Below are positions 1-38,093 of a stretch of DNA of 64,000 bases, in pieces. Each line of letters begins with the position of its first letter. The first letter of the stretch is position 1. The notes under the pieces are model-generated. The model did no database searches, was not told where the DNA came from, and saw only the letters and a list, made by a program, of their open reading frames with translations. Source of the stretch: Polytrichum commune (lineage: Eukaryota > Streptophyta > Polytrichopsida > Polytrichales > Polytrichaceae); NCBI GenBank assembly GCA_950295325.1, contig OX485809.1, positions 39,029,081 through 39,093,080 of the forward strand, read 5' to 3'. The translations under genes were made by a program, and so were the position numbers.

Positions 1-1153
1 TTACACACACTGCTTCCCCTAACCTTGCTTGGCAATGCCAGCAGACGAGATTGGGTGCCTGCACTCAGTCACCTATGAATCAAAACCTCTTTGATGAAAA
101 CATGTCTGAGTGCAACATTACTCAAGAAACTGCTAACATGATTACCAGAGACCGATCAACTTCCTCACATCCAAACAGGCCCTAAAAGAGCTTTGTAGGG
201 TGCAGAATTGAGATGCTGAAGTGCACTTCTTAATAATGTGCTGCCAATACACCAAGGAGTAGTCCCTCGAAGCTGATATCAGTGGTGAAAACCGAATGCT
301 TGGGACTGCTTAAAGCATACAAATCTGACATAAAAAGAATTTCCTTGTGGATCCCAAATTTGATAGAGAGGATAGAACAAGGATTCCAATGATGACAGAA
401 GATGCACTGAAACTCTGCAGACTGCACAAACACCACATCCAGTGTGATGCCTCAGCTCACAACCGCGTTCATTGGTGCAATAAACTTGGGAGTTTTTGGC
501 AATCTTCTATACATTACTTTTACCGGCACCCTGTTGATGCACCTTTTGTCAACAGGCAGAGTGCTTCTCTCCTAAGCCCGAACCAAAGTCCGTGTCGTTA
601 CTAGGCTCCATCGACAGGAACCCCAAAGGAATTTTATGCTTTGGATTTAACGATTGCAAGCCCTCAAGTCCGCGAAACCGAGGGTTATCGATGACATCCT
701 TCCCTAAGAAAAGGTGACAGTGGCGCACGGATCTCTGCTGGCTCTTCCTTCGTCTGAGCGAGAATTGAGACAGGAAATAATACACACCTGAATCCACTTG
801 CCTTGCACCTCATCAAGCTGAAAGAAATTCTTCAGGTCCACCCCGAGGTGTCTATTAATGCAAAACCGACAGAACCATCGCCGCCTTCGCTCCCCTTTGG
901 TGTTGGAGTGCCCGGCGCAATCGGGCGCTGGGCAAATGAACAATCCGCCGAACTGCCTGGTCGAGTTTTTCACTTTGCGCGAGATCCAGTCGCGAGGCCA
1001 TCCCTCCCCTCGCTCCAGCTGTTTCGCTGCTTCCGCGGGCGTCGTCGTATGATGATGCGTGCACCAATGGCACGCAGCCCTAAGCTCCAAGTTCAATTTC
1101 TCCCACAAATCGTGGTCTATTAAGAACGACGGAGTCCGCGACGACTCGTCCAT
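1..1153 (-). CDS. Zinc-finger module gene, left copy (partial; exon 1 788..1153, exon 2 <1..58)
   Basis: Seen: exon 1 begins at ATG 1153 and encodes 122 residues, ending at a CAG|gtgtgt donor (exon edge 788). Exon 2 follows a tgcag acceptor (edge 58) and runs off the window after about 19 codons. The protein has Cys pairs CHWC (residues 28-31), CPAPDC (74-79), CRFC (95-98) and CWHC (128-131). It is identical to the right-hand copy as far as visible; the three base differences in the shared coding part are all synonymous. The order of Cys pairs and the PDC...FC..C..R..G spacing resemble the zf-4CXXC_R1 (CDCA7-type) zinc finger; that assignment is an inference. A TTG-initiated extension upstream to 1216 is open but not needed. 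The next exons lie outside the window, so whether this copy also continues into a peptidase is unknown. Confidence 0.75.
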
Positions 1154-2070
1154 TTCAACCCCCTCCCCTCTTCCTTTTCCTCCCGACCCTTCAAACAACA
1201 ACCTCGCACAATCCAACCTGCGTCTTCCTATTATTATTCACCTTACACATTTGCATTGTCCACCCCAATCGCAGATCTTGTAGGGTTGCGCACATTTGGG
1301 CTCAGCTTAATCCCCCGCCATCATGGACCATGAATATGCGCTTATTGTATCCATGGGCATAATTTAAACAGCTCGAATGTCCACAGCTGCAGCTATACAC
1401 AACATCAACCCCCCTTCATTCTTGTGCACACGAATGCATACATCTCCGAACTTGCAGAAATTCTAGAAACCACTCACTTATTTATTCTTCACGTTCCACA
1501 TTAATCCTCATTGTCATCCAACCGACGACCGTTGCAATTTCCCACAACACAGGCCACAATATTCCTCACTGGCAACATCAGAGCCCCCGCATAAGAAATT
1601 CCGCACTTCCCATTCGACTACGAGGATGGCCCATCAACCGCGACCAAAGCGCTCGCAATTCCAGCCCCCGCACCAACACCGCCCAGCGAGAACGCCACAC
1701 TAAGCCCAGAAGTCACCTCAATGGGAAGCGCGCATCCCATCCTCGCGAGCGACACCACCCCGATTGCGTCCGCTACTCCCTCTGCCCCCGCAACAGTACG
1801 CGCCATGGCCAAAACCCACTTACCTCTGCACCCGCCAAGAACACAAAGCACCCGCGCTACCCACCCTGCGGACCTCAACACCCTCAGCACCCAAAAAACT
1901 CAGACACAACCCCGCCTCCCATCACAAAACATCAACAACCCCCCATCAACACACCCCGAACCCACCCGCGATCTTGCACTGCCGACATGCGCGAAAACAC
2001 AGACCGTGTTTGGGCCACAGTGCACAGAACGAGGCGAGGGAGGGCTCGTTCGGGAGCTTACAGCACGTGA
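1154..2070. promoter_or_regulatory. GC-rich 5' flank of the left zinc-finger copy
   Basis: This CpG- and C-rich stretch lies upstream of the exon 1 ATG and matches 22458..23360. Bases up to 1440 are identical to the right copy; beyond that the two drift apart, with indels after about 1890. It probably holds the 5' leader and promoter. No clear TATA box was found. A minus-strand frame (about 1618..1890) stays open in both copies, but its amino acids differ at many positions, so I do not call it coding. Confidence 0.5.
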
Positions 2071-15323: not shown

Positions 15324-18300
15324 CTAAACATCCACCCTCAGTTGCTCATCAATAGACGTGAAATGCTGAAAAAATGCCCTGAAATGGCGGAATGCTATGT
15401 CGATGTCGTCAGTGCTGCACATTTCTCGCACACTGCACAAGAATTAAATGCAAATTTAGAACCTAACAGATTCTAAAGCATGAAACTTTCTTGACCACTT
15501 CATGAGAACAGCAGCCCCTCAAGAGCAAAGCTCCTGTGAAGATTGATTGCTGTCAGATAATTTAGAGAGTTCAAAGTATATACTACATTTTCATACAGAC
15601 TACGTCCTTCATAACGATCACATACAGTTACATTTCTGTCTCAAATGTTTTTACTTCAGTTGATGACTTTAAAATTTCCAAATTGCCTACATAGTGATCT
15701 ATGTTGTGATCTGCTTCAATCCTTGAGATCAGTAAACAGGCAGGTCAGTGAGCAACCTGTGCATTGAAAGCTGGGGCAAGCCACAGTCAACAAGCCGGAT
15801 TCCATATCCTGCAGCTAATATTGAACTAACAGTTGAGCAGCAGCCTGTGTCCCTTGTCACTGCAAAATGCTGCATCAATGCACAGAACAATCTCTGGTCA
15901 TTAGAAGGTCATGCGAGACTGCAACTGATATTAGATGCAAATGGGTCCATTATGCAAAACTATAATCAACTTCCAATTCCAACTGCCACCAGTCATAAAC
16001 TAATGCATAATAGTTAAGTACCTGTGTTGGGATACCACTTCGTTTTGCCACTTCTCGAAAGAGAAAAGATGTAACAATGTCAGTAGCGTTGTTGTGAACA
16101 CCATCATGTCTGAGGACAAGCCCGTCATGAAGTCTGGGAAGATGCAAAGTATCCTCTTGCCCCGGTGGGCATGCTTGCGTAGGGTGCATAGCATCTGCCA
16201 TGTCAGCTGATACTGCACATGTAGCCAATCACATATTGATATTCAAGTGTTGATATTATCATTGGTCACTTCCTACCATTGACCATGTTCCCACAGAAAT
16301 GTACCAAAGCAAAAGTACTACACAGGAGCTGTATGATACACAACCCTCTAGTCTTGGTCTCAGTTCTCAAAGAAATCACTGCCCACTTGCAAACTAGCAT
16401 AGATGAGGAGCACATGGCACAGTACACAGAAGATGTGCAAAAGTACAAAATGTAAACCAACACCTATTGCAGTCTGTTTGATAAACTAAAAATGTAGACG
16501 TTACTGCCATTTTGATAGTTAAAATTACAAGTAGTCCAGGATTGAGGGAGAGTGGATAATCCAAAAGCATACAAACCTTAAACAAAGAGGATTAACAATT
16601 TGGAATTTAAGACATTGACAGCCACAAACTTCCTGCAGCTCGGTTATCCTAAAGCTTAGAATGAAAACCTCTTTAATACTACACACACATCAACTTTACG
16701 ATCCAGAATCACCACAACAACTCTCATAATGTCAAGGTTTTGAGTTCATTGTACTTTGAAGTTGATAGTGCATTGTGTATCGTATACAGTATATGAAGCA
16801 ACTCTCAAGCACAACCCAACAGTTGACCTCCAGTAAGTGGTCAATTGACATCAAAAGTCATTGATAATGGCCCACGAGCAGTACAGCCCTGTTTGTAGGA
16901 CCAGAAACTGGGAACAAGAAACTAACCTCATCACAAATAAGGTGTAAACTCTTTGATACAATGTAGAAAATTGGGAAAACAGTTGCTTTCACTTACCAAT
17001 AAAAGATCTTCGAATGGCCCTCTCAACAACCCCTTCACTATCTGAACCGCGAGCCAGCCACCTAGCAATGCGTGTCATGCCCTGCAACATCGTCTGTGGT
17101 CCTGCCGCTTGTGCTGAATCAGGGCCCCCTACCTGCACCCGTCATAATAATGATTTCAGAACAACTGAATCCCCAATTAGAGGTGCAGACCATAGACAAA
17201 TACTAACAAAAATGCAAATAAGCTTCTCAAGCACAAACATTTAAGAACCACCATACCTCACCATTATCGAATAGGGCAACCATATGGATACAGCTTTCCT
17301 CCACCAGGGAGGACGCCTCTGAGCACGTGTCCAATAATGCCCACAATGCACAGAAGGTTGGGGCTAGATTGTCCAACCTCCCAGAGAACACAAAATCATC
17401 ACGAGCACCACCAACACAGCCTGGTTGTGTGTCATATAAACTTAGCTCAAAATCTGCAATCTCACTAACGTCGCACTTCAACTCCTCTGCTAACACCTGT
17501 CAGCCATTGCCCCAACCATTCCCTGCTGTAAGCCATAACTGACATATCATGCAACAATCCTGATTAATTCAACAACCACAAAAACATTGTGGGTGCTTGT
17601 GATAACACAAATGATTTCCACTTCCACCAAGTCAAAACCAACAGAAAGTTTACAAGATTTAGTAGGAAAAGGGCCCACAAGGATACCTTCTTCATCCACA
17701 AGACCACAAATGAAGAACCCATCCCAATCCTTCAATTCTATGTCATTGTTTGATGATACACAGCAACAAACATTGCCTGCCATGGAGTGATTGACAGGAC
17801 CCGGTGTTGACTCACAACACTGACACCATGAATCAAAAAGAGACCTCACCCTTTCAGTTTTTTTCTTGATCTTTGAGCTGATAACAAATAGAAAAATTAG
17901 GGCCAGTTCACACGGGGTCCCTAGTCCCAAGTCCCAAGTCACTTGAGGTCAATCTGTGAAATCTTAGCCACTGAGAGCATGAAAGTTGGGACTTACCACT
18001 TCACACGGGTCCCAAGTCCTAAGTCCCAAGTATGACATGGATTATCCACATGGGAACACTTTTTGGAGGTGAGGCTCGGGACTTGTGTTGAGAGTCAGGC
18101 GAGCAAAAAGCTAGACCCAAACTCTCAACACAAGTCCTGTGAATATTTTTGCACAAAATAATCAAGATCCGACTTTGATTATAATTAGCCATATTTTAAT
18201 GGTATCTTGAGGCTCAAGAGTTGGGATTTGCTCACATGAGTGGGACTTGGGACTTGGGAACCCTTTTGAACCGACCCTTAGTCCAATGGCTGGTGAGAAC

Positions 18301-20414
18301 CATAGTCCATGTGACAGGCTTACGCCTCTTTCTGTGCAGCACTCCAGCACTTTGAGATAGGACTACCAACTCTCTGTCTGTCCTGATCACATGTGTGTCA
18401 AAAGACAGCAATTCGAGAACTGAAAGATGCAAGTTCAAATGTGCTCCTCACCTGGAGCAAAAGTGGGTGATGAGCAACCACATTTTGAGAGTAGACATGA
18501 GGTTGATCATTGTGCTCCATAGGCAATGGAGACTCAGAGTCATATGCCACAGCAAGTTCAGACTCTATCTGCATAGCCAGAATTGGTGCCAGGAGTACAT
18601 CCACATCGCTCTTGGCACCCCCATCAGAAACTGGCACTCTGCAAGACACTGCTACTGAGTCATGGGAATCCACTAGAATGATGCACATAATATGAACAAC
18701 TTCAGAAACACATAAGTTGAAGCAGCCTAATTCGGTTACTCGTCTTAATCGGTTACAACACCTACATTTGAGTGTTGTGTGGTTAGGTGTGATTCTAAGA
18801 TCGAACAACCCAAAAGCATGTTTTTTCCTTCCAAAGAGATTGGACTACATGCTCAAAGTTCGTTAACTTTTCAAAGTTCAATGGTCAAAATAATTATTGG
18901 GACTTATATACAGATTTAAGAAGAAAATTTTCACTTTGACAATTAGCAAGATTATCTTATGAGCTTCAAAAATTTCAAGGAAAATGGCTACGGCCTCAAT
19001 TTGGATTTGCAAATCTTGCCATACTAGTGTTTAATATCCTAGGATAAGTGGGCTAATCACAAAAACGTAACTATTTAGGACCCCTGTACCTTATACCACC
19101 ACAACCTACTACATACATATAGATCATTTCAGTTGTGATGTCAATGATGCCCACCTATCTAGAGATTTTGCCAATGTAGGAATGCGGAGTATGGGTCGCC
19201 TCACCCTCACCAGCTCATGGACAAGCTCACCATCTTTTCTTCGCAGCACAACCCGCCCTGCCACACTCAAATCCCTATCATACCACGTTTGCCATTGCCC
19301 TGTCGCATATGTTTGAACTCGTAGGTGCAAAAATCCTCCTTTTGAGGAATTGGACACTGCTTTCAATTTGGGGCAAGGGCTGTCTGTATGGGCTGCCACC
19401 ACATGGAAACCGTTTCCAGGCTTGTATCTACACAGGCCAACCATAACCCTTAAATGAGGTGAAATACAATAACAGGGAGGGAATGAACAATTCTCAATTA
19501 CAGATCACTTAGAAAATCATCCCTTCAGGCTTGGTGGAACAAGCCCACTACTTCCAGGCTAGGTGGAATTGGCTCCTTGTAAGCAGCAATCAATATTGCA
19601 CTATCAAAGTGATTCCATGAAAAATATTGTAGATTGACCCCCAAAAAGTCCTGATGCCTAAACCTGAAAAAGTGTCACAGTATCCTTAAAATTAAATAAA
19701 TGGGCAGATTGAAGAGAATCCTTACTTGTGACCAACTGCAAAAGCAAATATAGAAGACATGTTGCGTGTGAAGAAGTATCGTCCCCCTGGCAGCAATGCC
19801 CACTCTTCACATTCGCTCAACTGTTGAAATCCTGTTCTCAGCAAATGCCTCCTTGCCTCCGCTACTCATCCGGGGTTCTCTATGTCAGTCTTCATCCATG
19901 GATTGAGGCACAGATGAGAATTGAAGACGACTTGCACAAAATCAGAGTATTTGCAGCACATATACACCTAATTGTGGAAAATCTTTAGCAGAAACATTTC
20001 ATCTGCAATATCATTAAGTTCAAGAATGACAGATGTGTATTTCCAAATTTTAGTTCAAGGGCATCAAATACTACTCATTTTCCATTGTCTCTAGAGTCTT
20101 TTAAAAGCTAGACTATCTACTTAATTTGCAGAGTGTATTATTCTAAATGGCACTTGCACACATTTCAAACACTCGCTGATCGATAGTTGAGGCCAGATAT
20201 ACAAAGTACAATGCTCTTAGAGCCAACGGGATAAATCAATGTCTGCTTGTTTGAATTAGCTGTGGCACTTATTTGAACTCAAAGCACTATATACATTTAT
20301 AAACAAGTCAAACTTACCAGTAGCATGAAATGGTGTGCATGCATTGTTCAAAAACTCAAGTAAGCAAGGCACCACTATAGAACGCGATTCCCGAGAAAGA
20401 AGAACCTGCAACAT
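15324..20414 (-). CDS. M18 aspartyl-aminopeptidase-like protein, probable pseudoenzyme (9 exons)
   Basis: Exons (minus): 20405..20318, 19864..19726, 19427..19155, 18638..18452, 17496..17257, 17132..16997, 16212..16022, 15869..15757, 15432..15324; stop TAG at 15326..15324. All junctions are GT-AG and phases fit throughout, giving 491 codons. Family signatures: RYFFTRNMSS, VVAAHTDSPCPKLK, WYDRDLSVAGR, SLYDTQPGCVGG, FSGRLDNLA, SADMADAMHP, TSFLFREVAK, VDCGLPQLSMHS, STDDIDIAFRHF. M18 enzymes are dodecameric zinc peptidases that remove N-terminal Asp/Glu. Kept: His of AAHTDSP, Asp of GRLDNL, second Glu of the DNEEVGS motif, Asp of SADM, His of SMHS. Changed: DNEEVGS is DNGEVGG (catalytic-base Glu to Gly), WHTWFD is WQTWYD, and CGSTIGP is CCSTVSS. 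Metal may bind, but normal catalysis is doubtful. The start is uncertain: an ATG at 20414, in frame 9 bases above the first acceptor, or splicing from the upstream zinc-finger exons. The open frame across nine exons argues against a dead gene. Confidence 0.9.
17899..18280. mobile_element. TTCACAC-end MITE in an M18 intron
   Basis: It lies in the intron between the fourth and fifth M18 exons. The left end AGGGCCAGTTCACACGGGGT and inverted right end AAGGGTCGGTTCAAAAGGGT are followed in both arms by CCCAAGTCCCAAGTC. It is a close relative of 23474..23831. No clear target repeat. Confidence 0.75.
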
Positions 20415-20933
20415 TCACATCCCGTCATTTCTTAAGAAACTTAACATTAAATACATTGGCACCATATCACTTCAAGGAAACTCAATACTCAATAACGACT
20501 TCAAAGAGTGTGTTATTTCTCAAGCCATTGATATTGCCCTTCACAAGCAAGTCAAAAGTTCTCAAAAGTAACATAGTGTATTCACAATCCTCTTTTCCAC
20601 ACACAACCCACATAAAATTCCACTGATCATAAAGGCAAGTTCCATTGTGAGATAGACAAGGTACACGACCATCCTGATTGGATAACACTATGCAAGACAA
20701 GCTCTGAGTGGAGAAACTTAGACCCCTGTCCCCAGAGGTTCAACAACTGACTTATGCCAGGGACACTGAAACCTATGTGTCTGCACTACAACTTATCAGC
20801 CATTAGCTCCTTCAAAAGGATAACCTACCCTAGGAAAGGGTAATGTGATTCCATAAAATACAACCCTGAATTGATTTGTGAGCATGGCAGTATTATTCTG
20901 TATGAGCAATAAGAATTTGAAAAGAGAACGTAC

Positions 20934-22457
20934 CTTCTCTGAAAATATTGAACTTGAAGGTGGCGGTTGCTGCGGTTGCTGCTGTTGCAGAGGACCTATA
21001 TATCGAAGATCCGAAACTGGAGAAGCATGCAGTGGAAGTCTCATCCGCACAGGATTTTCACCAACCCCAAAGTTATTATCATCCATACTGTCATTTGCTG
21101 GGCCACCTCTACCTTCACTTGATACACCATCATAATCACCTTCCCCGGCCGCAGCTAGAACTGCAGCAGCTCCAATGGCATTCGAAACACCTGATGAGCC
21201 CAACAATGCTCGTGTAGGTGGCATAGGACTTTCTTTCACTCTCTTAGCTGCTCTCTTTGTATTCTTCTGTGGGCAATTTACACACACTGCTTCCCCTAGC
21301 CTTGCTTGGCAATGCCAGCAGACGAGATTGGGTGCCTGCACTCAGTCACATATGAATCAAAACCTCATCAATGAAAAAATATCTGAGCGCAACATTACTC
21401 AAGAAATTGCTGACATGATTACAAGAGACCGATCAACTTCCTCACATCCAAACAAAGCCCTAAAAGAGCTCAGTACGGTACAGAATTCAGATGCCAGAAT
21501 GTACTCCTAAAAAATGCCCTGCAAATTAATGAAGGAGCAGTCCCTCACAGCTGACATCAGTGGTCAAAACCAAATGCTTGGGACTCGTCAACGCACACAA
21601 ATGTAAAACGAAAAGCATTCCCTTGTGGATCCCAAATTTGAAAGAGAAGATCGTACAAGAGATCCCAATGACGACAGAAGATACCTTGACTCTCTGCACA
21701 CTACACATAAAAATAGCACACCCAGTGTGATGGCTCAATTCACAACCGTGACCATTGCTGCACCCATTTCTTTTTTTGGGTGATGTTCTATATATTACTT
21801 TTGTCAGCACCCAACGCCCGCAGGACTGTTGATGTACCCTTTTGTCAAAATGCAGGCTGTTCCTCTCCTAAACCCAAATTAAAAATCCACGTCCTTACTA
21901 TGCAGGCTCTATTGACAGAAATTCCGAAAGATTGTTATGCTTTGGATTTAACGATTGCAAGCCCTCAGGTCCGCGGAACCGAGGGTTGTCGATGACAACA
22001 TCATTCCCTAAGAAAAGGTGACAGTTGCAAATGGATATCTGCTGGCTCTTCCTTCATCAGGCCGAGAATTGAGACAGGAAATAACACACACCTGAATCCA
22101 CTTGCCTTGCACCTCATCGAGCTGAAAGAAATTCTTCAGGTCCACCCCGAGGTGTCTATTGATGCAAAACCGACAGAACCATCGCCGCCTTCGCTCCCCT
22201 TTGGTGTTGGAGTGCCCGGCGCAATCGGGCGCTGGGCAAATGAACAATCCGCCGAACTGCCTGGTCGAGTTTTTCACTTTGCGCGAGATCCAGTCGCGAG
22301 GCCATCCCTCCCCTCGCTCCAGCTGTTTCGCTGCTTCCGCGGGCGTCGTCGTATGATGATGCGTGCACCAATGGCACGCAGCCCTAAGCTCCAAGTTCAA
22401 TTTCTCCCACAAATCGTGGTCTATTAAGAACGACGGAGTCCGCGACGACTCGTCCAT
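20934..22457 (-). CDS. Zinc-finger module (exons 22457..22092 and 21335..20934), possibly the N-terminus of the M18 protein
   Basis: Exon 1 starts at ATG 22457 (122 codons, phase-0 donor CAG|gtgtgt). Exon 2 starts after a tgcag acceptor (134 codons, phase-0 donor AAG|gtacgt). Ten Cys fall in five pairs: CHWC 28-31, CPAPDC 74-79, CRFC 95-98, CWHC 128-131, CVNC 140-143. This resembles zf-4CXXC_R1 (CDCA7-like) fingers, which bind DNA or chromatin; the match is inferred from Cys spacing only. A basic run (KNTKRAAKRVK, 146-156) looks like a nuclear signal, and a Q/P/S-rich tail (about 237-252) ends the module. There is no stop before the donor, so coding must continue downstream. The next recognisable coding exon on this strand is the first M18 exon at 20405, also phase 0. 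A fused product would have about 747 residues. An unseen terminal exon in 20406..20933 is the alternative. Confidence 0.7.
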
Positions 22458-23360
22458 TTCAACCCCCTCCCCTCTTCCTTTTCCTCCCGACCCTTCAAAC
22501 AACAACCTCGCACAATCCAACCTGCGTCTTCCTATTATTATTCACCTTACACATTTGCATTGTCCACCCCAATCGCAGATCTTGTAGGGTTGCGCACATT
22601 TGGGCTCAGCTTAATCCCCCGCCATCATGGACCATGAATATGCGCTTATTGTATCCATGGGCATAATTTAAACAGCTCGAATGTCCACAGCTGCAGCTAT
22701 ACACAACATCAACCCCCCTTCATTCTTGTGCACACGAATGCATATATCTCCGAACTCGCAGCAATTCTAGAAACCACTCACTTATTTATTCTTCATGTTC
22801 CGCATTAATCCTCATTGTCATCCAACCGACGACCGTTGCGATTGCCCACGATACAGGCCACAATATTCCTCGCTGGCAACATCAGAAGCCCCGCATAAGA
22901 AATTCCGCACTTCCCATTCGACTACGAGGATGGCCCATCAACCGCGACCGAAGCGCTCGCAATTCCAGCCCCCGCACCAACACCGCCCAGCGAGCACGCC
23001 ACACGAAGCCCAGAAGTCCCCGCGATGGGAAGCGCGCATCCCATCCTCGCGAGCGCCACCACTCCGATTGCGTCCGCTACTCCCTCTGCCCCCGCAACAA
23101 TATGCGCCATGGCCAAAACCCGCTTGCTTTGCACCCGCCAAGAACACAAAGCACCCGCGTTACCCCACCCTGCGGGCCTCAACGCCCTCGACACTCACAA
23201 GCGAATGCACACAGCGAATGACACAACCCACGGGCAACAACGTCATCGACAAACATCGAGGAGCGGCGATGTTGCGGGGTGCTCAAATCTGGCGTCTTTC
23301 TGCCACAAGAGCCCCGAGCGAGGAGAACTAAGGCGCGTTCGGGAGCTTAGGGTGTCACTC
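21278..23360. repeat. Right copy of the ~2.07 kb segmental duplication (left copy 1..2070)
   Basis: Offset 21304 aligns 788..1441 with 22092..22745 without gaps. Bases 858..1440 and 22162..22744 are identical (583 of 583 by eye). The intron (59..787 versus 21336..22091) and the distal 5' flank show roughly ten per cent differences with indels. The true left limit is outside the window. Confidence 0.9.
22458..23360. promoter_or_regulatory. GC-rich 5' flank of the right zinc-finger copy
   Basis: Likely promoter and leader of the minus-strand locus, matching 1154..2070. A plus-strand frame of 178 codons (22795..23331) is open here because the strand is C-rich. It is not kept in the other copy and I do not call it a gene. 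Confidence 0.5.
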
Positions 23361-23473: not shown

Positions 23474-23831
23474 AAGGGGCGCTTCACATAGGGTCCTAAT
23501 AAGTCCCAGGTCATTTGAGGTCAATCTGTGCAATCTTAGCCGTTGAGAGCATGGAAGTTGGGACTTACCACTTTACACAAGGTCCCAAGTCCTAGGTTCC
23601 CAGTATGACATGGATGCCTACATGGCAACACTTTTTGGAGGAGAGGCTCGGAACTTGTGTTGAGAGTTGGGTTGAGCAAAAAGCTAGACCCAACTTTCCA
23701 CAAAAGTCTCGCGATCTTTTTTTGCATAAAATGTGACTTTAAAAAATATTTGAATGGATTCTTGAGGCTCAAAAGTTGCGACCTTGCCTCCATGTTGGGA
23801 CTTGGGATCCCATGTGAACCAGCCCAAAGGT
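23474..23831. mobile_element. TTCACAC-end MITE, relative of the intron copy
   Basis: The ends AAGGGGCGCTTCACATAGGG and inverted CCTTTGGGCTGGTTCACATG are followed by GGGACTTGG/CCAAGTCC words in each arm. The interior aligns with 17899..18280 (shared CAACACTTTTTGGAGG, AAAAAGCTAGACCCAA). Confidence 0.75.
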
Positions 23832-25784
23832 CCAAGGCCAAAGAAACTCCAAAGTTGAGCAAACCTTTTGGTCTGGAGCAAAATTTTGGACAAAAGGAGT
23901 TTACACTGAGGTTTGGGTTCAAGGTATGAAGAATCAAAGTGGTGCTAAATGTGGCATCGCTTTCATGTTAAATCCCATTGATCCCCCACTAAAGAAAAAC
24001 ACTCCACGCATTTTGAAAAACCAAATTTCAAGCTTGAGTCCAATTTTGAGTCCAAAAAGTAAGGTTCATTGAGAGGTGTTTTGAACCCCAAGTTTCTTAG
24101 ACCCGAACCTTTATGTATACTTACCTTAGGATATGTTGTCATGGAAAAGTGGGAACAAAAAACCAATGTCATGTCTTTCCACCTCCTCTACCTCGTACCA
24201 TAAGATGTTTCCATGTTCATATTTTTAATGCCGAACTATACATTCCATGTGGGATTTGAGTGCACCTCAAGAAATTTTAATTTGTCTTGTGGTAAAAGTT
24301 GAGTGAGGAAGCAATCTACGGCAACATGGGATTTAGAAATTAGAACGCCAAGGGTTAAGCTATGAACCACCTCGACATACAATATCTACTTGGAGGAGGT
24401 GGTACCCGCACGCTCTCGTTGTTTTGTCCATGCTTTTGAATGAAAAAAACTTAGTTAGGAGCATGTGTGATTCCATTTCCATCGAGAAGCGGAAATGGAA
24501 TGTTGATGTCATTGAAAATCTCTAGCACATATGTTTTCTTGTCTTTTTCTTTTCTAAATAGTTCCTCCACCTTGTAACATGGATCTTACATTGCGGAGTA
24601 CATTGCATACTTGAAAAAGGTCATAGCAAGGTGACATTAGCAATCCATTCTTGCTTCTCAATGGAGTCACACCATTAGATTGAACCTTATTGAAACGGTG
24701 GTGTCATTGATCGAATCTCTTTTGCGTGTCCAATTGTAGCAACAATGGATGGATTTTTCTACCCATTCCACTTATATGGATTTCACAAAATATAAAGTGG
24801 AAGGTTTATATGCCAACTTCCTTAAATATGCTCACTAGTCGGACATGGCGGTACTGAAGTAGCAACTGCATTATGTCTTCCCTCTCAACGTTAACCCTTA
24901 TGAGGGTGGGTATACATTAGGATTTTAATCCCAAACGATCCTTTAAGAACCTTTACTTATGGATTTGACATTGAACCTAAGCCTAAAGATTGGATCCTCA
25001 AACGAGAAGGAATATATTCCTATGTTGGGACCAACAAATTATGTGTGGAAAAGTGGTGCCACATTACCACCTCCGTTTCTTTGGTATTTTGGGTTCAAAC
25101 CTTGGTGAAAGCTCCTCGGACCAAACTTCGCATAGGTCACTTGATTTTGAGAGTTTCTTTTGTCTTGGATATGACAGAGTCCCATTTGGTTGATGAGAAG
25201 TTTATGTTTACCTTAATGGCTTCAAGGTAGGCTATACCTTCTGAATATGTATTTGGCACCACGTGGAGATGACTTCATGGATATGACTCTTAAACATTTC
25301 ATTATGTTTTTAAATAACATTGAAATCCTTTGCCATTTCATAACTATGCTGAGTAGATACATGATGATCTCATTCCAAAGAAAGACGTTGCGATTACAAA
25401 ACTCGTTTAATTGATAGTCACTTGTTGCAAAGTTAATATTACACAACACAAGTGCTCCTCATAAAAGGGGCATCCTAGGATTAAAGACTAATTGTGCTCA
25501 TGTGATGCATGGTCCCATGGAACGCCATTGAGGAGTTGTGAAATGTTGTTTTCTTCAACCACTTCAAGCATATTTAAATGAATGGGTGGATGGAAGACAT
25601 GGAAACACACCCTTACAATAGGCGAGAAGCAAAATTTGGCACTAGGTGCAAATGGAATTCGGAGGGTCCCTTGGCCGGAGCTTTGAGACTTGATGACGTT
25701 TGTGTGTAAGTATGTGGGTGTCCTTGAGTAGGTATCCACAACAACAAACAAGGGCATGAAGTCACCATGGTACCTACGTAACGA
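23832..25784. other. Unclassified sequence, no gene called
   Basis: Frames are short and interrupted. The stretch 24990..25230 reads like degraded coding DNA but I recognise no family. The right part (25488..25784) includes the dispersed repeat also seen at 2187..2340. Confidence 0.45.
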
Positions 25785-36642: not shown

Positions 36643-37097
36643 CTGGGCTTCATCACTCTAATAATGGTTGTAGCCAGTGCTCCTCTGCTAAAAGTTTGAA
36701 ATGGCAATACTGTAGTGCCGCCACGTGGCGTTCGCTCAAGTTTTGAAAAGGAGGTGAACACATCGGGCAAAGGGAACTGCGCAGTTCACGGTAAGGAGCT
36801 TGGCAACGGCGCAGTTCCAAGCACGGTTGAGGAGCACCACCTTCCCCACTCAGCAAGAGAGAGAAGGTGAAAGAAGGAGCAGCAGCAGCAGAATGGGCAT
36901 GGCATGCCAAACCCCAGCACCATAGCCACACCTCATGCAGCCACAGCGCTTCGGCACGCCCATTGCTGAGCTCATTTGAAGGCTCCTTCTGCTGCGGCTG
37001 CAACTGCAACGGCGAGGTGGTAAGACGTGAAACGGGAGTGGCGGGAGGTTCAGCGGTGGCGGGTTGATTGAGTTGGAGTGGAATAGGGTTTGGTTTG
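36643..37097 (+). promoter_or_regulatory. 5' flank and leader of the BFN gene, with a possible short uORF
   Basis: GC-rich stretch between the truncated element and the start ATG. An AGAGAGA/GCAGCAGCA stretch looks like leader sequence. A ten-codon ATG frame (36893..36925, MGMACQTPAP) would be a uORF if transcription starts above it. The start site cannot be read from sequence. Confidence 0.45.
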
Positions 37098-38093
37098 ATG
37101 GAGGCTGTGCAGGCTGTGGGGTATGGGAAGGGGCATCATCTTATTCCGACGAATTCTGTATTCTGTGCTCCTGTCCGATCTGCAACTGCGAGGTGCCATG
37201 GGTTGCAGGGGAGGTTTTCGCAGGTTTCTGCCAAAGTGGCTGTGAATCTTGTGGGGTTGGGGTTCAATTTGAGTGTTAAGAAGGGGCTCACAAATTGCGG
37301 GTCATGGAGGAAGAAGGTTCATCATGTATCTGCTTCTTATGAGAGCTCGAGTGGGGGAGGGAACAGCCATGTGGAAGATGGTGATAACGGGACGGTTGAG
37401 TATCTGGAAGCCCAGGTTATGGATGCTGTGAGCATGGTCCCGTTGCAAGGGAAGTTACTCATGACGTTCGGGAATGGGAAGGAGATGGAGGTAGATCACA
37501 TCAACCCTGCCAAAGGCCGCTTACTGTACAAGTCCAGCACGCCGACTATCTTCTTGAAAGTCACAGATGGGTCGAACCTTATGCTGCCAATTGTGGTGGG
37601 AGAGACAGCGGTGAACATGCTGATGAAAGCTCTCCACGATGATGACAACGGTAGGCCAAATTTTTACCACCTCATGCGAGACTTGGTGGGCTCATTGCAA
37701 TATGAGGCCAGAATGGTAAGGATCACTGAGAGGGTTGTGGACACATACTACTCTCGAATTTATATTGCGAAGCCAGGGGAGGCGGAGGGCTTCAGTTTGG
37801 ATGCGAGGCCATCAGATGCAATCAACTTCGCAGTGAGATGCAAGGCACCCATTTATGTGAATAGTACAATCATTAGATCAGACGCTGTCCGACCAGTGAC
37901 CGAGACAGAATTCTCAAGAAGGGTGGATCTGACTACTTCAAGGAAGAGAAGCCCTCTCCAGATTGCCACATCCACTGATGAGTTGACCATGTTGATCAAG
38001 ATGCAGGTTGCCATCACCGAGGAGCGCTATTTTGATGCCGCTCACTGGCGAGACGAACTAATGAAGCTACGCTCAAAGCGGCGCCTCATATAG
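37098..38093 (+). CDS. BBD: Bifunctional nuclease (BFN/DUF151 + UVR domain) protein
   Basis: 331 residues in one uninterrupted frame. The start is ATG 37098 (MEAVQAVGYG); the frame is open upstream to 37068 but without ATG. The N-terminal ~90 residues are Ser/basic-rich, as in plant homologues, and could be a targeting region. The BFN domain spans about 112-256, with LPIVVGETAVNMLM, VRITERVVDTYYSRIYI and the hallmark LDARPSDAINFAVRCKAPIY. A C-terminal UVR-type helix pair follows (about 304-328, AITEERYFDAAHWRDELMKL). Arabidopsis and rice BBD proteins with this layout have RNase/DNase activity and act in basal defence; the same role here is inferred. The absence of introns is unusual, as I recall the angiosperm genes being split, and could mean a retrocopy or intron loss. 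Length and motifs look complete, so it is probably functional. Confidence 0.92.
   Translation: MEAVQAVGYGKGHHLIPTNSVFCAPVRSATARCHGLQGRFSQVSAKVAVNLVGLGFNLSVKKGLTNCGSWRKKVHHVSASYESSSGGGNSHVEDGDNGTVEYLEAQVMDAVSMVPLQGKLLMTFGNGKEMEVDHINPAKGRLLYKSSTPTIFLKVTDGSNLMLPIVVGETAVNMLMKALHDDDNGRPNFYHLMRDLVGSLQYEARMVRITERVVDTYYSRIYIAKPGEAEGFSLDARPSDAINFAVRCKAPIYVNSTIIRSDAVRPVTETEFSRRVDLTTSRKRSPLQIATSTDELTMLIKMQVAITEERYFDAAHWRDELMKLRSKRRLI

What the first reader, a model, noticed from the sequence alone, without database searches (positions are those of the whole stretch)
15324..20414. M18 aspartyl aminopeptidase that keeps its metal ligands but has lost the catalytic base
Nine exons join in phase into a full-length M18 protein. 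The five aligned zinc ligands (His, Asp, Glu, Asp, His) are all present, but the general-base Glu in DNEEVGS is Gly (DNGEVGG). The His of WHTWFD and the CGSTIGP loop are also changed. Selective loss of catalytic residues in an otherwise open gene suggests a pseudoenzyme with a new role, such as scaffold, substrate capture or partner of an active M18 dodecamer.
Basis: partly seen in the sequence, partly recalled or inferred. Interest (0 to 1): 0.7.

Follow-up and report, generated by a model that had tools for sequence, protein, structure and literature searches.

The report
Maintained dead aminopeptidase with Cys-rich head
A plant gene pair descended from an ordinary peptide-trimming enzyme appears to have lost the parts that do the cutting, kept the metal-binding parts, acquired a cysteine-rich front end, and been preserved by natural selection, so it probably does a non-cutting job that is still unknown.

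Summary
The window carries a full-length, frame-open M18 gene (DAP2-type aspartyl aminopeptidase) with all five zinc ligands but Gly for catalytic Glu301 (human DNPEP numbering). It is one of a tandem pair; sister A has Ala there. The codons are GGT and GCT against GAA in the intact paralogue, so Glu was probably lost before the duplication. His170, His349 and Tyr381 are also replaced in both copies; the His of WHTWFD is not catalytic (Ser in human).

A against B gives omega 0.11-0.12 at dS about 0.7: not a decaying pseudogene. Change was concentrated before the duplication (38 conserved positions changed in both copies, 8 in the intact paralogue alone, p 9e-6). Two M18 genes with intact sites lie elsewhere.

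Genome searches found it only at A and B; no Pfam family passes cut-off. Predicted proteins: 746 and 743 aa.

Best reading: a maintained, non-hydrolytic, probably zinc-loaded pseudo-aminopeptidase with an N-terminal module. Ligand, partner, location and expression are untested.

The parts
22092..22457 (-). Predicted coding exon 1 (copy B): Cys/His-rich module, 122 aa, MDESS...KWIQ, donor gtgtgt
   Evidence: Open in both copies; protein identical in A and B, 2 synonymous differences in 366 nt; only two matches found in the genome; no Pfam family at E<=1
20934..21335 (-). Predicted coding exon 2 (copy B): CWHC...CVNC motif, basic KNTKRAAKRVK stretch, low-complexity linker, 134 aa
   Evidence: A/B omega 0.19 (GY94, LRT against omega=1 37.5) to 0.25 (NG86), in-phase length difference; only two matches found in the genome; DZR at E 0.12, below cut-off, in B only
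20318..20405 (-). M18 exon 1, joins exon 2 in phase 0
19726..19861 (-). M18 exon 2
19155..19427 (-). M18 exon 3: zinc ligand H94 kept; WQTWYD; swapped-loop His170 replaced by Ser (codon 19165..19163)
18452..18638 (-). M18 exon 4, variable part of the dimerization domain
17257..17496 (-). M18 exon 5: D264 and E302 kept; general base E301 replaced by Gly (codon GGT, 17262..17260)
16997..17132 (-). M18 exon 6
16022..16212 (-). M18 exon 7: D346 kept; H349 to Asp (codon 16195..16193), K374 to Arg, Y381 to Asn
15757..15869 (-). M18 exon 8: CCSTVSS in place of CGSTIGP; H440 kept near the exon end
15324..15432 (-). M18 exon 9 and stop codon (15326..15324)
788..1153 (-). Predicted coding exon 1 of tandem sister copy A; its exon 2 begins at window position 58 and the rest of A lies left of the window, stop at C7:39021940

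Best explanation
A DAP2-type M18 aspartyl aminopeptidase gene was duplicated. One copy lost its catalytic groups (Glu301 base, swapped-loop His170, substrate contacts His349 and Tyr381) while keeping the five-ligand zinc site and the domain over its full length, carries a Cys-rich N-terminal module where the intact paralogue has a transit-peptide-like leader, and was then duplicated again in tandem. Both copies are kept by purifying selection. Shown here: open gene models, residue losses, loss shared by both copies, constraint between the copies, paralogues with intact sites. Inferred: it does not hydrolyse peptides; it still binds zinc and forms M18-type dimers or dodecamers; it works outside the plastid as a binding or scaffold protein (chaperone-like holdase, or carrier of the Cys-rich module), perhaps using the remodelled pocket to hold a peptide end without cutting it.
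For: Open spliced frame in A and B. Ligands 5 of 5 kept; of five catalytic or substrate residues none is kept in both copies (E301 A/G, H170 V/S, H349 D/D, Y381 N/N lost in both; K374 lost only in B), against 112 of 146 other positions invariant in human, S. pombe, C4 and C6 (Fisher p 9.4e-4). In hDNPEP the H170F mutant has no activity and Glu301 is proposed to activate the water (PMC3472314, part 2 of 4 of the text). omega 0.11-0.12, LRT against omega=1 204.6. Codons GCT/GGT against GAA. Change on the stem 38 against 8, p 9e-6, then 6 and 7 in A or B alone; stem length 0.5 against 0.066, 0.078 and 0.081 for the C4, A and B tips. 8 of 8 M18 introns shared with C4. Precedent: AtDAP1 is both peptidase and chaperone, and a peptidase-inactive tomato LAP-A mutant is chaperone-enhanced (PMC5638241, section 28).
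Against: No RNA or protein evidence and no assay: a dizinc site could retain some activity. The M18 domain was not folded. The 5' exons are joined by phase and A/B conservation only, and A needs a GC donor; exon 1 differs by two synonymous changes only, so selection on it is not measurable. Binding, scaffold and location claims have no direct evidence; AtDAP2, the nearer relative by my assignment, showed chaperone activity in only one of three assays (PMC5638241). Keeping 5 of 5 ligands is not by itself unusual when 112 of 146 other invariant positions are kept. The Fisher test counts K374 as lost although A keeps it. K374 and Y381 also vary in another solved fungal M18 (5jm6: Cys and Met). 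The 27 positions lost in both copies are identical between A and B in 21 (78%), below the 86% of the whole domain. dS to C4 is saturated, so no omega for the stem could be had. The C4 model rests on exons I joined by hand.
Confidence: 0.6

Rival explanations
1. Regulatory (poison) subunit: the protein co-assembles with an active M18 (DAP1 from C6, or DAP2 from C4) and, lacking Glu301 and the trans-acting His170, has a dead site of its own and also disables its dimer partner's.
For: His170 acts in trans in hDNPEP (PMC3472314), so the double loss would disable both sites of a mixed dimer. The dimerization domain stays constrained (omega 0.13). C. elegans PID-5, an aminopeptidase-like protein judged inactive with an extra domain, binds active APP-1 (PMC7849312, passages).
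Against: The swapped loop itself has diverged (I169, H170, N176, F179, N182 lost in both copies). C4 has a transit-peptide-like start by eye and A/B do not, so compartments may differ. 62% (C4) and 53% (C6) identity. Interfaces not modelled.
Confidence: 0.2
2. Still an enzyme with altered specificity or mechanism: the dizinc site hydrolyses another substrate without Glu301.
For: All five ligands kept; much of the pocket is changed to the same residues in both copies (21 of 27 positions).
Against: Base and swapped-loop His are both lost and replaced by different residues in A and B; no acidic residue takes position 301. H170F alone abolishes hDNPEP activity.
Confidence: 0.13
3. Decaying pseudogene or assembly artefact.
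For: Catalytic residues lost; no expression evidence.
Against: omega 0.11-0.12 at dS about 0.7, LRT 204.6; no stop or frameshift in either model; two diverged copies, whose M18 introns give no hit when compared on their own (0 of 8 pairs at E<=1e-3; an exon-anchored hit does run across the short intron 5).
Confidence: 0.04

Closest known systems
Plant DAP2 (AtDAP2, At5g04710) and its presumed intact relative here on C4
   Same: M18 domain; all 8 internal M18 introns of A/B shared with C4; 62% identity to C4; five ligands
   Different: Lost E301, H170, H349, Y381; Cys-rich head instead of a transit-peptide-like leader; long stem branch. Not compared with AtDAP2 itself: no plant sequences were held
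Moss PpDAP2b1/PpDAP2b2 (PMC5638241: abstract, sections 16, 17, 25, 28 and passages seen; tables not held)
   Same: A second moss DAP2 group with a further pair of 87% identity (A/B here 86%)
C. elegans PID-5 (PMC7849312, passages)
   Same: Lineage-restricted, probably inactive aminopeptidase domain joined to another domain
   Different: X-prolyl aminopeptidase type, eTudor domain, zinc ligands not conserved; here the ligands are kept
Drosophila S-LAPs (PMC3078892, abstract and section list)
   Same: Aminopeptidase duplicates whose largest group is inferred to have lost activity; a results section on purifying selection
   Different: M17 family, testis/sperm; no fusion mentioned in the abstract

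Membership tests
M18 peptidase family (Pfam PF02127) | Full-length match to the family profile | tested here: met
   E 6.6e-117, profile 1-432 of 432
M18 peptidase family (Pfam PF02127) | H.D.E.D.H metal-ligand signature | tested here: met
   5 of 5 in A and B
Active aspartyl aminopeptidase (DNPEP/DAP) | General base Glu301 | tested here: not met
   Gly in B, Ala in A
Active aspartyl aminopeptidase (DNPEP/DAP) | Swapped-loop His170 | tested here: not met
   Ser in B, Val in A
Active aspartyl aminopeptidase (DNPEP/DAP) | Acid-specificity pocket Lys374, His349, Tyr381 | tested here: not met
   B: Arg, Asp, Asn; A: Lys, Asp, Asn
Active aspartyl aminopeptidase (DNPEP/DAP) | NCBIfam equivalog NF002759 cut-off | tested here: not met
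   B 346.9 bits against cut-off 356; C4 509.8 (A and C6 not run). The library serves prokaryote annotation, so this weighs little
Active aspartyl aminopeptidase (DNPEP/DAP) | Hydrolysis of Asp/Glu substrates; dodecamer | not testable with these tools
   No assay; the M18 domain was not folded
DAP2 lineage | Intron positions and tree place with DAP2 and not DAP1 | tested here: met
   8 of 8 introns shared with C4 against 5 with C6; C4+A+B supported 100/98 on a 7-row tree. That C4 is DAP2 and C6 DAP1 is inferred from exon numbers given for Arabidopsis (9 and 11), not from plant sequences
Maintained pseudoenzyme | Catalytic residues lost, gene under purifying selection | tested here: met
Maintained pseudoenzyme | Absence of catalysis shown by assay | not testable with these tools
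   needs recombinant protein
Known zinc-finger family (N-terminal head) | Match to a known domain family or solved structure | tested here: not met
   No Pfam family at E<=1 for the whole head; DZR E 0.12 under cut-off for exon 2 of B alone; PDB sequences E>=0.76; NCBIfam only FliZ E 0.12, under cut-off; fold model of exon 1 poor, pLDDT 57.8, no match at E<=0.001

The most novel reading that the evidence does not exclude
The dead site has become a reader: the two zinc ions still hold a peptide N-terminus, and the acid-preferring pocket has been remodelled into a more negative one (residues 340-385, with the insert there: net charge -5 in both copies against -1, +1, +2 and +2 in C4, C6, human and S. 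pombe, His not counted), so it would bind a different, perhaps basic, N-terminus without cutting it and present it through the Cys-rich head: an N-terminal-residue recognition protein made from an aminopeptidase.
Probability: 0.1. Interest if true: 0.85.

Novelty: new variant of a known kind. Interest (0 to 1): 0.55.

Why it matters
Inactive aminopeptidases kept for other jobs are reported in other families. For M18, none was seen in the rows listed by seven paper searches, and a 2024 review of metallopeptidase pseudopeptidases does not contain the term M18; the library lacks most subscription papers, and MEROPS may list inactive M18 homologues (recalled). Here nature appears to have separated metal binding and fold (kept) from catalysis (removed) in a plant family where one member is both peptidase and chaperone. 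It makes the question 'is chaperoning by plant DAPs independent of catalysis?' testable with a naturally altered member.

Tried and rejected
Sequencing error or splice restoring Glu: rejected, since diverged copy A lacks Glu too (GCT) and the codon lies inside the exon. Pseudogene: rejected by omega. His of WHTWFD as catalytic: rejected, Ser in human. ATG at 20414 as the conserved start: rejected for A (no ATG there), not excluded as an alternative start in B. Identity of the Cys-rich head: Pfam, NCBIfam, PDB sequence, single-sequence AlphaFold model of exon 1 and Foldseek, prokaryote genomes (39 pattern matches, none a relative) gave nothing convincing. The megablast against phages, and the DNA pattern (badly composed; one match on C3, not looked at), led nowhere. 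Lineage: the best PDB match of this genome's PsaD is 9vfj (698 residues, three stretches), then 8htu, 7ksq and 6l35; that the last three are from the moss Physcomitrium is recalled, so 'moss-like' is an inference. Orthologues in other plants could not be sought: the genome tool says G000 has no relatives there and the other collections hold prokaryotes, viruses and plasmids (and metagenomes, for which no scan was allowed).

Rows dropped before counts: the alignment had seven rows; the 5jm6 row (CT) was left out of the invariant-position count, and of the 18 PDB sequences only three were used, those whose alignment was printed and that are not bovine near-copies of the human one.
Full report
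What is there. The window is C7:39029081-39093080 of a 408 Mb genome. A search of that genome with the Pfam M18 model gives 21 exon matches, which fall into four loci: C4 (5), C6 (6), and two in tandem on C7 (5 and 5) about 21 kb apart. The tool calls its counts lower bounds. I built spliced models for all four with a protein-to-DNA aligner, using as guide the C4 protein that I had joined by hand from exon translations. None has a frameshift or internal stop. The finding is copy B (window 22457..15324, minus). Copy A begins inside the window (exon 1 at 1153..788) and runs out of it to the left.

Gene structure. Two more exons lie upstream and join in phase 0: exon 1 (122 aa) and exon 2 (134 aa in B, 130 in A). 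Together with the M18 part they make predicted proteins of 746 aa (B) and 743 aa (A). Support for the fusion: both junctions keep phase in both copies; exon 2 is under purifying selection (omega 0.19 by GY94, LRT 37.5; 0.25 by NG86); copy A has no ATG in its first M18 exon or in the open frame just before it; and blastn at E<=1e-5 finds no A/B similarity between exon 2 and the M18 part, so no conserved alternative first exon is seen. Weak points: A needs a GC donor after exon 2, exon 1 is too alike in A and B to measure selection, and there is no RNA. The head has ten cysteines, mostly as CxxC pairs, followed by a basic stretch. Pfam, NCBIfam, PDB and prokaryote searches gave no convincing match, and a single-sequence fold model of exon 1 was too poor to use (pLDDT 57.8). 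In this genome only these two loci were found.

The active site. Numbering by human DNPEP was checked by eleven residues falling on the expected letters. Metal ligands H94, D264, E302, D346 and H440 are kept in both copies. The general base E301 is Gly in B and Ala in A. H170, which reaches into the neighbouring subunit's site and whose change to Phe abolishes activity (PMC3472314, parts 1-3 of 4 read), is Ser and Val. H349 is Asp in both; Y381 is Asn in both; K374 is Arg in B and Lys in A. Of 156 positions invariant in human, S. pombe, C4 and C6, 117 are kept in both copies, 27 lost in both and 12 lost in one. None of the five catalytic or substrate residues is kept in both copies, against 112 of 146 others (Fisher p 9.4e-4; K374, kept in A, counts here as lost). 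A further fungal M18 in the alignment (5jm6) was left out of that count; it has Cys and Met at 374 and 381. C4 and C6 carry the expected residue at all of these positions.

Selection and history. A and B are 86% identical in protein over the M18 part (410 of 477). NG86 gives dN 0.081, dS 0.728, omega 0.111; GY94 gives omega 0.119 with LRT against omega=1 of 204.6. By region (NG86) omega is 0.072 for the first proteolytic stretch, 0.134 for the dimerization domain and 0.111 for the second proteolytic stretch. Against C4 synonymous change is saturated, so the stem's omega is unknown. The Glu301 codon is GAA in C4, GCT in A and GGT in B; the shared third base T suggests an ancestor already without Glu, though two separate losses are not excluded. 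Among 229 gap-free positions where C6 equals human, 38 changed in both A and B but not C4, 8 in C4 alone (p 9e-6), and 6 and 7 in A or B alone. A 7-row tree puts A+B with C4 (100/98), with a stem of 0.5 and tips of 0.066 (C4), 0.078 (A) and 0.081 (B). So change was concentrated before the tandem duplication and then slowed. All eight internal M18 introns of A and B are at C4 positions, five of eight at C6 positions. By exon number and the description of Arabidopsis genes (PMC5638241, section 17) C4 resembles DAP2 and C6 resembles DAP1.

Mechanism. Shown: a maintained gene pair that lacks the catalytic base and the trans-acting His but keeps the zinc ligands. Inferred: no peptide hydrolysis, zinc binding, M18-type assembly, a location outside the plastid (the C4 start looks like a transit peptide by eye and that of A/B does not; no predictor was run), and a binding or scaffold role. 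AtDAP1 is a peptidase and a chaperone, and a peptidase-inactive mutant of another aminopeptidase, tomato LAP-A, is chaperone-enhanced (PMC5638241, section 28); a naturally inactive DAP doing the chaperone part is the simplest reading. AtDAP2, the nearer relative by my assignment, showed chaperone activity in only one of three assays (same section), which weakens this. A poison-subunit role is the main rival, because His170 works in trans. The pocket region has become more acidic in both copies (net charge -5 over residues 340-385 against -1 to +2 in C4, C6, human and S. pombe). Of the 27 positions lost in both copies, 21 carry the same residue in A and B; that is a directed-looking change, but at 78% it is no more conserved than the domain as a whole (86%), and positions 170 and 301 themselves differ between A and B.

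Known and new. Probably inactive aminopeptidases with other roles are reported: C. elegans PID-5 (PMC7849312, passages) and Drosophila S-LAPs (PMC3078892, abstract and section list). For M18 I saw none in the rows listed by seven searches of the held open-access library (20, 20, 12, 12, 12, 12 and 40 rows of 1,235, 350, 1,909, 6,281, 107, 35 and 58 papers); I opened only a few of those papers. A 2024 review of metallopeptidase pseudopeptidases does not contain the term M18 (passage search), and four further papers checked by passages describe no inactive M18. A moss has a second DAP2 group with a young pair of 87% identity, and a clubmoss also has two DAP2 paralogues (PMC5638241); whether that is this lineage could not be tested. 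I rate it a new variant of a known kind.

Limits. No transcripts, no orthologues from other species, no assay and no structure of the M18 domain. 'Land plant, moss-like' rests on PsaD similarity and recall.

Noticed in passing
window 20983..23201 against -294..1897 (copy A 5' region): The 5' region of the two copies is far more alike than the M18 part: 98.7-100% per block over 22158..22757, upstream DNA included, fading on both sides. Exon 1 has 2 synonymous differences in about 78 sites against 156 in 335 in the M18 part (Fisher p 6e-16). This looks like gene conversion of the head and the DNA before it.
   Followed up: partly
window 18720..19093 and copy A introns 3, 6 and 7: A repeat of about 340 bases (68-74% identity between the two genes) sits in M18 intron 3 of B and in introns 3 (opposite orientation), 6 and 7 of A: apparently separate insertions of one repeat family.
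   Followed up: no
window 17900..18287 and 23476..23836: Two stretches 77% alike, one in an M18 intron of B and one upstream of the gene.
   Followed up: no
window 37068..38093 (+): Open frame of 341 aa with a bifunctional nuclease (BFN) domain, E 1.9e-22.
   Followed up: no
G000:C4:24687934-24688858: The PsaD match of this genome falls in two pieces about 520 bases apart, as if split by an intron.
   Followed up: no
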